From the NCBI GenBank assembly GCA_022827685.1, contig JAJEIH010000131.1:1-64000 (forward strand): 64,000 bases of DNA. The letters are read 5' to 3'. The translations under genes were made by a program, and so were the position numbers. The notes beneath the pieces were generated by a model. That model saw only the letters and a list, made by a program, of their open reading frames with translations. It was not told the origin of the DNA and searched no databases. Below, in pieces: positions 40,608 to 43,666 of the stretch. Every line of letters begins with the position of its first letter. The stretch's first letter is position 1. This DNA comes from Alphaproteobacteria bacterium. GTDB taxonomy: Bacteria; Pseudomonadota; Alphaproteobacteria; Bin95.

Positions 40608-40700
40608 CGGCGCCGCTCCCCCCGGGGAAATTCCAGCCGCACCGATACCCCGTCCGCCCCACGGCTTCAAGGCAGGCCGGGAGCATAGCGCGGCTCAACA

Positions 40701-40776
40701 GATAAATTCACCCAATATGGGATAATTCAATTGACAACTTGTTTTGGAATACTTACGGTCTATCCCTGATAAGGGA
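40701..40776 (+). promoter_or_regulatory. candidate higBA promoter and operator region
   Basis: A perfect -35 TTGACA (40731-40736) with a weak -10 TACGGT 17 bp on (40754-40759) lies in an AT-rich island. The 8-bp palindrome TCAATTGA (40727-40734) overlaps the -35, direct repeats GATAA(A)TTCA start at 40701 and 40721 (two turns apart), and a TCCCT-GATA-AGGGA hairpin (40763-40776) falls at the expected transcript start. The palindrome is a reasonable HigA operator. Confidence 0.45.
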
Positions 40777-40819
40777 GGATTAAGGATCATGCGCCAAATA
40801 ATTCAAGAGGAATTCACAT

Positions 40820-41116
40820 ATGAAACTTGCAGGCCGACGCCATATCGATGCTGCAATCCAGAAACATTCCGATTTGATCGGGCCTTTGCGAGCGTGGACA
40901 GCGGAGATCGAGGGTGCATCGTGGAAAACACCGCTCGACATTACATCGCGTTATCCGAGAGCATCCATCCTGCCCGGAGGCCAACGGATCGTTTTTCGGA
41001 TCAAGGGAAATCGATACCGGTTGATCGCGGTAGTCGCGATTGCCGAAGGAATCGTCCAAGTCCGATGGATCGGCACCCATGCTGAATATGACCGCATCAA
41101 TGCCAACACCGTTTGA
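40820..41116 (+). CDS. higB: HigB-family mRNA interferase toxin
   Basis: 98-aa toxin of the HigB group (RelE superfamily; the COG4680/PF09907 'HigB_toxin' type). Diagnostic pattern: ALRAWTAEIE-like helix, WKTPLDITSRYPRASIL, then strands RIVFRIKGNRYRLIAVVAI and the C-terminal RWIGTHAEYDRI. Such toxins cleave mRNA on the ribosome. AGAGGAA precedes the ATG at 40820. Toxin-first order is normal for hig loci; the stop lies 20 bp before the antitoxin start, with an SD between. Confidence 0.9.
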   Translation: MKLAGRRHIDAAIQKHSDLIGPLRAWTAEIEGASWKTPLDITSRYPRASILPGGQRIVFRIKGNRYRLIAVVAIAEGIVQVRWIGTHAEYDRINANTV

Positions 41117-41136
41117 GAACAGAGGAGAACAAACCC

Positions 41137-42375
41137 ATGAGCATCGTCCGTCCCGTCAGGACGGAAGCAGACTACGAACCGGCGCTGGAAAAACTTGACG
41201 CCCTCATGGTTCTGCAGGACCGCAGTCCTGACCAGCAGGATGAACTGGAGATGCTGGCCCTGGCGATCGAGGCTTACGAACGCCGCGCAACCCCGATCGG
41301 GCCTCCCGACCCGATCGACGCGATCCGCTTCCGAATGGACCAGGCTGAACTTACGGCTGCCGATGTGGCCCCCTATTTCGGCGGACGCAACCGCGTCTAT
41401 GAGGTCTTGAACGGCCGACGCGACCTGACCCTGGGCATGATCCGCGCCCTGCACATTCATCTCAGCATCCCGGCCGACATTCTTCTGGGACGGCCGGGCG
41501 CATCCCTGCCGGGGGCCTCCGCCTGGGACTGGAACCGCTTCCCGGTTCGGGAAATGATCCGGCGTGGCTGGCTGCCTGCGGTGAAAGCCGTTTCGGACAA
41601 GAAGGAGGAGTTAGTCCGTTCTTTTCTGACCGATGCATTCGGTTCGGATAGCGGTGCTGCGTCGTTCCGCCGTGGCGCGCGCGAAAATGCGATGGCGGAG
41701 CCCCATGCGCTCACGGCCTGGTGCGCACAGGCTGTAAGAATGGCGAACGAGGATCGGCCGCTTGATGCAAGCTTCGACGCCCGCGAGATTGACGGTTCCG
41801 CCTTCCTGCGCGAACTCGCCGGACTGAGCGCCGAGCCAGACGGACCTCGAAAGGCGGTCGCCCGGATGCGCAAGGCCGGTATCCGCTTTCTGGTGCTCCG
41901 CCACCTTGACAGAACCTATCTGGACGGCGCTGCGATGTACAGTCCGGATGGCGCGCCCCTGGTCGCCCTTTCCCTGCGTTATGACCGCCTCGACAATTTC
42001 TGGTTCTGCCTGCTGCACGAATTGGCCCATGTGTTTCTGCATCTCGACGATGCGGCGGGCGAAGGTTCTCCCATTTACGTGGACGACATGTCCTTGGGCC
42101 AACCGGAAGACGGCAATGGCGAGGCGGAACGCGAGCGGGAGGCCGACACCATGGCCGGAGACGCCTTGATTCCGCCGAAACTGTGGCAGACGTTCGACAC
42201 AGGGGAAGCCACCGCTTTGCGAATTATCGCCCTGGCGCGGGAAGCGGGGGTTCATCCCTCCATCGTGGCCGGGAGGGTTCGACACGAACTGGGAAACTAT
42301 CGCCGGTTCGCGGAATTGATCGGAAATGGCCTCGTCCGCCCATTCTTCCCGAAGGACGGCGTATATCCGGGCTAG
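41137..42375 (+). CDS. HigA-type antitoxin fused to an ImmA/IrrE metallopeptidase
   Basis: 412-aa two-part protein. Residues 1-118 are a COG5499-type HigA antitoxin: a helical start (YEPALEKLDALM), a DPIDAIRFRMDQAELTAADVAPYFGGRNRVYEVLNGRRDLTLGMIR helix-turn-helix. Residues about 240-350 are an M78 peptidase of the ImmA/IrrE family: HELAH (His294, Glu295, His298) and the third-ligand region EREADTMAGDALIP (Glu335). The zinc site looks intact. ImmA-type peptidases cleave phage-like repressors under stress, so the peptidase may regulate the linked repressor or another target; this is inference. GAGGAG before ATG 41137 decides the start over the TTG that overlaps the higB stop. Confidence 0.85.
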   Translation: MSIVRPVRTEADYEPALEKLDALMVLQDRSPDQQDELEMLALAIEAYERRATPIGPPDPIDAIRFRMDQAELTAADVAPYFGGRNRVYEVLNGRRDLTLGMIRALHIHLSIPADILLGRPGASLPGASAWDWNRFPVREMIRRGWLPAVKAVSDKKEELVRSFLTDAFGSDSGAASFRRGARENAMAEPHALTAWCAQAVRMANEDRPLDASFDAREIDGSAFLRELAGLSAEPDGPRKAVARMRKAGIRFLVLRHLDRTYLDGAAMYSPDGAPLVALSLRYDRLDNFWFCLLHELAHVFLHLDDAAGEGSPIYVDDMSLGQPEDGNGEAEREREADTMAGDALIPPKLWQTFDTGEATALRIIALAREAGVHPSIVAGRVRHELGNYRRFAELIGNGLVRPFFPKDGVYPG

Positions 42376-42443
42376 AGGCCTGAAGACAAATTCGGCCCGG
42401 CCGCCAATCTGGCCGCCCCTGTGACGGCAATGCGGACGGGTTT

Positions 42444-42460: not shown

Positions 42461-42484
42461 CCGCAACCGGGGGCCGCTTTGCCC

Positions 42485-43666
42485 ATGACGACCCAGCAGA
42501 CCACGGGGCCGCTCAGCGGCGTCACCGTCATCGACCTCACCCGCGTGTTGGCGGGGCCGTATTCCACCATGATCCTGGCCGAGCTCGGCGCCCGCGTCAT
42601 CAAGGTGGAGACGCCCGGCCGCGGCGACGACGCCCGCGAATACGGCCCGTTTGTCAACGGCAAGTCGGCCTATTTCATCTCCGTCAACCGCGGCAAGGAG
42701 AGCATCGCGCTCGACCTCAAGGACGACGGCGACCGCGCGGTTTTCGAGGCGCTGCTTGCCGGCGCCGATGTGGTGGCGGAGAATTTCCGCCCCGGCACGA
42801 TGGAGAAGCTCGGCTATGGCTGGGATGACCTGAAGGACCGCTACCCGGCGCTGATCTACGCCGCCTGCTCCGGCTTCGGCCATTCAGGCCCCCATTCCAA
42901 GCGTCCGGCCTATGACATGGTGGTGCAGGCGATGGGCGGCATCATGTCGATCACCGGCCAGCCGGGCCAGGAGCCGACCCGCGTCGGCATGTCCATCGGC
43001 GATATCGGCGCCGGATTGTTCACGACCGTCGGCATCGTGACGGCGCTCTACGACCGCGCCCGCACCGGGCGGGGCCGGAAGCTCGACGTTTCTATGCTCG
43101 ACTGCCAGATCGCGCTCTGCGAAAACGCGGTCGCCCGCTTTGGCGCGACCGGCGTGTCGCCGGGGCCGCTCGGCGGGCGGCATCCCTCGATCACGCCTTT
43201 CCAGACCTTCCGCACACTGGACGGCTGGATGGTCGTCGCGGCGGGCAACGACATCATGTTCCAGCGGTTCTGCGACATTCTCGACCGAGCCGACCTGAAG
43301 GACGACCCGCGCTACGCCTCCAACAATCTGCGGAATGAAAACCAGGCGAGCCTCGAAGCCGAGATCGAGACCATCCTCGCCGCCCGCAGCACGGCCGACT
43401 GGCTCGCCCTGCTCGACCCGGCCGGCATACCGGCAAGCGGTATCAACGATATCGGGACCGTGATGGCGCATCCCCAGGTGGAGCCGCGCAACATGGTGGT
43501 CGAGGTGGACGACCCGACCGCTGGCCGGCTCAAGGTCGCGGGCAACCCGATCAAGCTTTCCGGCTATGACGACCCGGCGTCCCGCGCCACGGCCCCGGAC
43601 GTCGATCAGGACCGGGAGCGAATCCTAGGGGAGCTGGCCGCGCGTACTGTCGCGGCATCCGCATGA
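42485..43666 (+). CDS. CaiB/BaiF (class III) CoA-transferase
   Basis: 393-aa CoA-transferase with the full family pattern: PLSGVTVIDLTRVLAGPYSTMILAELGARVIKVE, AENFRPGTMEKLG, SGFGHSGPHSKRPAYDMVVQAMGG with the catalytic Asp144. It resembles the 16.2-kb paralogue more than the divergent 17.5-kb one. It leads a tight plus-strand run with the acylase (10-bp gap) and threonine dehydratase (4-nt overlap). Substrate unknown. Confidence 0.93.
   Translation: MTTQQTTGPLSGVTVIDLTRVLAGPYSTMILAELGARVIKVETPGRGDDAREYGPFVNGKSAYFISVNRGKESIALDLKDDGDRAVFEALLAGADVVAENFRPGTMEKLGYGWDDLKDRYPALIYAACSGFGHSGPHSKRPAYDMVVQAMGGIMSITGQPGQEPTRVGMSIGDIGAGLFTTVGIVTALYDRARTGRGRKLDVSMLDCQIALCENAVARFGATGVSPGPLGGRHPSITPFQTFRTLDGWMVVAAGNDIMFQRFCDILDRADLKDDPRYASNNLRNENQASLEAEIETILAARSTADWLALLDPAGIPASGINDIGTVMAHPQVEPRNMVVEVDDPTAGRLKVAGNPIKLSGYDDPASRATAPDVDQDRERILGELAARTVAASA

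What the first reader, a model, noticed from the sequence alone, without database searches (positions are those of the whole stretch)
40820..42375. HigB toxin paired with a HigA antitoxin fused to an ImmA/IrrE metallopeptidase
The HTH half (residues 1-118) is a complete HigA-type antitoxin, and the C-terminal half keeps an apparently intact zinc site (HELAH plus EREADTMAGDALIP). ImmA/IrrE peptidases elsewhere destroy repressors on a stress cue. A peptidase on the antitoxin chain offers a built-in switch: self- or trans-cleavage could free HigB, or the peptidase could link TA activity to DNA damage or phage. HTH-ImmA fusions are known, but how this three-part module works is, to my knowledge, not settled.
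Basis: partly seen in the sequence, partly recalled or inferred. Interest (0 to 1): 0.68.

Follow-up and report, generated by a model that had tools for sequence, protein, structure and literature searches.

The report
Toxin–antitoxin pair with built-in peptidase
This is a two-gene bacterial toxin–antitoxin cassette whose antitoxin carries a protease domain: the arrangement was described in 2009 and a relative is a proven anti-phage system, so this copy is one more member, but comparing them shows that the tested relative belongs to a side branch in which the HigB toxin has lost its active site.

Summary
ORF 40820-41116 is a HigB toxin (Pfam, 81.9 bits) with its conserved residues kept. ORF 41137-42375 is one chain with a HigA-type half and an ImmA/IrrE (M78) peptidase half; its AlphaFold2 model (pLDDT 89) matches E. 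coli HigA and PprI/IrrE plus CapP. Zinc residues H294, E295, H298 and E333 are invariant in 83/83 relatives, and both halves are under purifying selection. The pair is a discrete ~1.7 kb insert: present in 3 and cleanly absent from 4 genomes of its genus.

It is not new as a kind. Makarova 2009 described Xre-Zn-peptidase fusions beside RelE/PIN toxins and proposed antitoxin cleavage. Vassallo 2022 showed the E. coli relative PD-λ-2 to be anti-phage; PADLOC's PD-Lambda-2_B model matches ours at 413 bits. RosmerTA is similar.

Added here: "PD-λ-2" lumps two clades. E. coli-type loci (19/19) have a HigB-fold protein stripped of its active site, plus gene C. The window's clade, found in many phyla, keeps HigB intact and lacks C (32 genomes tested). 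Hence PD-λ-2's odd result, B toxic and A the antidote, probably does not transfer to this locus. Protease activity, trigger and substrate are untested.

The parts
40820..41116 (+). HigB-family (PF09907) RelE-fold toxin, 98 aa; conserved F59, N64, R67, H87, Y90 present
   Evidence: Pfam 81.9 bits; PADLOC PD-Lambda-2_A 103 bits; column comparison with 60 relatives and E. coli HigB
41137..42375 (+). HigA-M78 fusion (antitoxin-peptidase), 412 aa, ATG start with AGGAG upstream
   Evidence: PADLOC PD-Lambda-2_B 412.9 bits; AF2 pLDDT 89.1, pTM 0.81; Foldseek HigA plus PprI/CapP
41137..41496 (+). HigA-type half (residues 1-120), HTH antitoxin
   Evidence: phmmer to 5ycl_A/5ifg_B; Foldseek 6kml_B prob 1.00; dN/dS 0.09-0.12 against two congeneric copies
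41842..42372 (+). ImmA/IrrE (M78) peptidase half (residues 236-412)
   Evidence: Foldseek 8slm, 8sln, 3dte, 7t5t prob 1.00; dN/dS 0.14-0.18
42016..42030 (+). HELAH zinc-binding motif (residues 294-298)
   Evidence: H294, E295, H298 invariant in 83/83 aligned proteins
42133..42147 (+). EREAD (residues 333-337); E333 is the candidate third zinc ligand
   Evidence: E333 and A336 invariant in 83/83
40711..40721 (.). CCC-N5-GGG inverted repeat, candidate operator; outer CCC and GGG kept in both 91%-identical relatives
   Evidence: alignment of three upstream regions; weak, three sequences only
40761..40766 (.). TATCCC half-site, candidate operator; ATCCC kept in both relatives
   Evidence: weak
40685..42412 (.). 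extent of the insert relative to the empty site between gatC and a CoA-transferase gene (ends approximate, within about 20 bases)
   Evidence: blastn against G454, G449, G451, G448

Best explanation
A two-gene type II toxin-antitoxin cassette of the HigBA type. HigB is a ribosome-dependent mRNA endonuclease held by the HigA half of its partner, which also represses the operon. The ImmA/IrrE peptidase half is a stress- or phage-activated protease that, once triggered, cleaves the HTH antitoxin half (its own or a neighbour's in the complex). This releases HigB and derepresses the operon, so an infected or damaged cell stops growing. Shown here: gene order, folds, intact active-site residues in both proteins, purifying selection, and gain or loss as a unit. 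Inferred from relatives: toxin action, antitoxin action, autoregulation, defence role. Inferred without direct evidence in this branch: proteolysis, its substrate and its trigger.
For: HigB conserved residues are kept in the window and across the C-less clade: F59 60/60, N64 59/60, R67 59/60, H87 59/60, Y90 58/60. Zinc residues are invariant in 83/83, kept in 16/16 unsplit fusions in a profile search (about ten of them new), and HExxH in 14/14 viral-contig copies. The HigA half matches E. coli HigA, and the peptidase half matches PprI and CapP; both cleave HTH repressors and are activated by ssDNA (PMC10904395). E. coli HigB of the same Pfam family cleaves translated mRNA, and HigA/HigBA bind operator palindromes (PMC11980606). 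dN/dS of the peptidase half is 0.14-0.20. A HigB-like gene sits directly upstream in 77/80 relatives. PD-λ-2 and RosmerTA, which share the architecture, defend against phage.
Against: No cleavage, toxicity or defence assay exists for this branch. In PD-λ-2 the fusion protein itself was toxic and A was the antidote, the reverse of this model, although A there has lost its active site. The same genome holds a second higBA without any peptidase (L002), so the peptidase is not needed for a HigBA pair as such. No defence genes were recognised next to the cassette; its neighbours are gatCAB and a CoA transferase.
Confidence: 0.55

Rival explanations
1. PD-λ-2-like polarity: the HigA-M78 chain is the toxic effector through its protease, and HigB serves as its brake, so the names toxin and antitoxin are swapped.
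For: In E. coli PD-λ-2, B alone was toxic and A rescued growth (PMC9519451). The window B matches the PADLOC B model, named for that system, over its full length.
Against: The E. coli-type A proteins are HigB folds (TM 0.86 to 5ifg_A) that have lost the conserved R, H and Y and the C-terminal end in 19/19 loci, whereas the window keeps them. The two types are separated by one branch with SH-aLRT 100. C, required for PD-λ-2 defence, is absent here.
Confidence: 0.17
2. The peptidase half is a sensor or structural cap that works without proteolysis: binding of ssDNA or a phage protein loosens the HigA-HigB contact.
For: M78 proteins bind or respond to ssDNA (PprI, CapP), and antitoxins can release toxins by conformational change (general knowledge).
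Against: All four zinc-site residues are invariant across many phyla, which is more than a pure binding role should need.
Confidence: 0.15
3. A plain HigBA addiction module in which the peptidase is a passenger with no present role in this organism.
For: Closely related HigA proteins without peptidase are common: in 398 genomes of the phylum, 10 full-length fusions against several dozen HTH-only matches. A peptidase-free higBA sits in the same genome.
Against: Peptidase half dN/dS 0.14-0.20; zinc site never lost in 83 aligned relatives; the fusion label changes only about twice on a tree of 117 HTH halves.
Confidence: 0.13

Closest known systems
PD-λ-2 (Vassallo et al. 2022, PMC9519451)
   Same: HigB-fold A directly upstream of a HigA-M78 fusion B; full-length match of B to the PADLOC model; same order and strand
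   Different: PD-λ-2 has a third gene C (Pfam Beta_protein) required for defence; E. coli-type A has lost the HigB active site; the window has neither feature and lies on the other side of a fully supported branch
Xre-COG2856 fusions next to RelE/PIN toxins (Makarova et al. 2009, PMC2701414)
   Same: architecture and proposed mechanism: a protease cleaving the HTH antitoxin in a three-part module
   Different: a prediction covering many toxin types; the text searched does not mention HigB by name
RosmerTA (RmrT/RmrA; discussed in PMC10440598)
   Same: ImmA-type peptidase plus HTH antitoxin paired with a toxin; anti-phage; HTH cleavage suggested
   Different: its toxins are varied (one tested toxin depolarises membranes); RmrA models score only weakly against the window B (16 bits)
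HigBA of E. coli K-12 (PF09907 HigB)
   Same: toxin family, toxin-first order, HigA fold of the N-terminal half
   Different: no peptidase
CapP/CapH of CBASS and PprI(IrrE)/DdrO
   Same: fold and zinc site of the peptidase half
   Different: protease and HTH substrate are separate proteins; no RelE-type toxin

Membership tests
HigBA type II toxin-antitoxin (PF09907 branch) | HigB-fold toxin above the family cut-off with conserved R, H, Y residues | tested here: met
   81.9 bits against cut-off 27; R67, H87, Y90 present
HigBA type II toxin-antitoxin (PF09907 branch) | HigA antitoxin fold encoded directly downstream | tested here: met
   Foldseek to HigA prob 1.00; 20 nt between the genes
HigBA type II toxin-antitoxin (PF09907 branch) | toxin toxic alone and neutralised by the partner | not testable with these tools
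   needs expression assays
PD-λ-2 | A + B pair of the PADLOC models | tested here: met
   103 and 412.9 bits
PD-λ-2 | third component C (Beta_protein, PDLC03983), required for defence | tested here: not met
   absent from the window's genome; the same search finds it in 17/17 E. coli-type genomes; no such gene follows B
PD-λ-2 | A of the E. coli type (HigB fold without active site) | tested here: not met
Xre-COG2856 (M78) fusion next to a RelE-fold toxin | HTH plus HExxH peptidase on one chain beside a RelE-type toxin | tested here: met
ImmA/IrrE (M78) peptidase | HExxH plus downstream Glu, and the PprI/CapP fold | tested here: met
   invariant residues; Foldseek; note that the Pfam M78 score of 18.5 is below its cut-off of 22
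ImmA/IrrE (M78) peptidase | proteolysis of an HTH repressor | not testable with these tools
   needs biochemistry
RosmerTA | match to RmrA over its length | tested here: inconclusive
   only residues 239-309 match, 16.3 and 14.8 bits

The most novel reading that the evidence does not exclude
HigB switched sides in one lineage. From a two-gene system like the window's (active HigB, HigA-protease), the PD-λ-2 clade arose by loss of the HigB active site and gain of gene C. The former toxin became the antidote and the former antitoxin-protease became the toxin. This would explain the unexpected published finding that PD-λ-2B is toxic and PD-λ-2A rescues, and predicts opposite polarity at the window locus.
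Probability: 0.4. Interest if true: 0.68.

Novelty: new member of a known kind. Interest (0 to 1): 0.42.

Why it matters
As a locus it adds one clean, minimal example: two genes, both active sites intact, an empty site in sister genomes. Its larger use is comparative. It shows that the defence-annotation label 'PD-Lambda-2' joins two systems likely to differ in which protein is the toxin. That gives a direct test of how a toxin can turn into an antitoxin, and of whether the fused protease is the switch, as proposed since 2009 and, in the papers I found, not tested.

Tried and rejected
NCBIfam gave no match. A sigma-70 promoter scan found none, and terminator-like sites were at chance level. 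Inverted-repeat search upstream of the window gene gave only short palindromes. The zinc-site count was seeded partly by a peptide that ends four residues before HELAH (YDRLDNFW), so I rechecked it on fusions found by profile without that seed. A tree of the HTH halves is too short (121 columns) to say whether the peptidase was gained once; one row (L124) had a wrong start and was dropped. Complex prediction of HigB with HigA-M78 was not possible (single chains only). Phages: no GenBank phage record covers 80% of B, though 14 IMG/VR contigs carry near-full-length relatives.

Full report
WHAT IS THERE. The window holds two genes on the + strand between a gatCAB operon (- strand) and a CoA-transferase gene. 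The first, 40820-41116, encodes 98 residues that match Pfam HigB_toxin at 81.9 bits. The second, ATG 41137 to stop 42375, encodes 412 residues. Pfam sees its HTH and M78 parts only below threshold (13.3 and 18.5 bits), but the PADLOC model PD-Lambda-2_B covers it end to end at 412.9 bits. AlphaFold2 on a 60-sequence alignment gives pLDDT 89.1 and pTM 0.81. Foldseek places the N-terminal half on E. coli HigA (6kml_B) and the C-terminal half on PprI/IrrE (8slm, 8sln, 3dte) and CapP (7t5t), all with probability 1.00. E-values there are modest (2e-4 to 1e-2) because each match covers only part of the chain.

IS THE ZINC SITE INTACT. H294, E295 and H298 of HELAH and E333 of EREAD are identical in 83 of 83 aligned proteins. 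That set was partly collected with a peptide pattern close to the motif. A search with profiles instead gives 16 of 16 unsplit fusions that keep HExxH and the downstream Glu; about ten of these are new, the rest are E. coli and congeneric copies already in the set. Fourteen IMG/VR contigs keep HExxH too. Against the two 91%-identical congeneric copies, dN/dS is 0.09-0.12 for the HTH half and 0.14-0.18 for the peptidase half. The other half of that test, dispensability, is mixed: peptidase-free HigA relatives outnumber fusions in the phylum, and one sits in the same genome beside an intact HigB (L002).

A DISCRETE INSERT. In four congeneric genomes (G448, G449, G451, G454) the flanks 39.3-40.68 kb and 42.41-44.2 kb join directly, while G450 and G452 carry the cassette at the same place. 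The unit gained or lost is about 1.7 kb and contains only these two genes; no integrase and no third gene come with it. The direction (gain or loss) was not determined.

RELATION TO KNOWN SYSTEMS. Makarova et al. 2009 (PMC2701414) described Zn-peptidase (COG2856)-Xre fusions in operons with RelE or PIN toxins and argued that the protease cleaves an Xre repressor that may be the antitoxin. Vassallo et al. 2022 (PMC9519451) found PD-λ-2: a HigB-like A, a HigA-peptidase B and a P4-antitoxin-related C, giving abortive-infection defence; B alone was toxic, A rescued, and C was required for defence against λvir. Work on RosmerTA (PMC10440598) describes ImmA-HTH antitoxins and suggests HTH cleavage. 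PprI and CapP, the nearest solved peptidases, are activated by ssDNA and cleave DdrO and CapH (PMC10904395).

TWO LINEAGES UNDER ONE NAME. Of 80 relatives in GTDB genomes, 77 have a HigB-like gene directly upstream. They fall into two kinds. In 17 of them, plus two E. coli loci, A is about 84-97 residues from the conserved Met, lacks the conserved R67, H87 and Y90 and the C-terminal end, and L068's copy scores below the HigB cut-off (25.5 bits against 27). It still folds as HigB: AF2 pLDDT 94.9, TM 0.86 to E. coli HigB 5ifg_A. All 17 genomes have C by profile search, and the two E. coli loci are annotated with a Beta-family C gene just downstream. In the other kind, to which the window belongs, A keeps these residues (R67 59/60, H87 59/60, Y90 58/60), and C was absent from all 32 genomes of that side tested, from L063 and from the window's own genome. 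On the B tree the two kinds are separated by one branch with SH-aLRT 100 (the root is unknown). The window kind is spread over Cyanobacteriota, Spirochaetota, Chloroflexota, Acidobacteriota, Myxococcota and others; the C kind is nearly all Pseudomonadota. Exceptions on the C-less side are L031, with a degraded A, and L009, L021 and L063, without a detected A (L021's contig starts too close to B to tell). I infer, but did not prove from the paper's own accession, that the tested PD-λ-2 is of the E. coli C type.

MECHANISM. The best-supported reading for the window is an ordinary HigBA pair with an added protease that destroys the antitoxin half on a stress or phage cue. Steps shown: folds, intact residues, gene order, selection. 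Steps inferred: toxicity, neutralisation, autoregulation (a CCC-N5-GGG repeat at 40711-40721 and TATCCC at 40761-40766 are only partly conserved in three sequences), proteolysis, trigger. The PD-λ-2 polarity is the main rival and looks less likely here because HigB is intact.

VERDICT. A real, well-conserved system; a new member of a known kind. The locus alone is of modest interest. The split into an active-HigB lineage and a dead-HigB lineage with C, which fits the puzzling published toxicity result, is the part worth following.

Noticed in passing
L002:2-745 (G000 contig C68): A second higBA in the same genome, intact HigB (101.7 bits) and a 124-residue HigA without peptidase: a natural control for what the peptidase adds.
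   Followed up: partly
L105:1117-2565: A HigB of the other family (PF05015) is paired with its own HTH-M78 fusion carrying HELEH, so the peptidase has been joined to two different HigA types.
   Followed up: partly
L100:578-3403: DUF6932 protein, Xre-M78 fusion and a Beta_protein in a row: gene C travels with other Xre-peptidase proteins too.
   Followed up: partly
L120:5695-8655: In E. coli C the PD-λ-2 type locus is followed by a SIR2 gene and a tyrosine recombinase next to rcnR, which looks like a small integrated element.
   Followed up: no
L122:1995-3142: On a Mesorhizobium plasmid the fusion is split into overlapping HTH and peptidase ORFs; a frameshift or a natural two-chain form.
   Followed up: no
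L003:4684-6236 and L004:3462-5015: Between these two congeneric copies synonymous divergence is 0.38 in A, 0.07 in the HTH half, 0.01 in the middle and 0.10 in the peptidase half, which suggests recombination within the cassette.
   Followed up: no
window 42479-43666 and the whole genome: The neighbour is one of 43 CoA-transferase (CaiB-like) matches in this genome, an unusually large set.
   Followed up: no
L031:4642-4998: A degraded HigB-like A without gene C in an alphaproteobacterial MAG: a possible intermediate or an independent decay.
   Followed up: no
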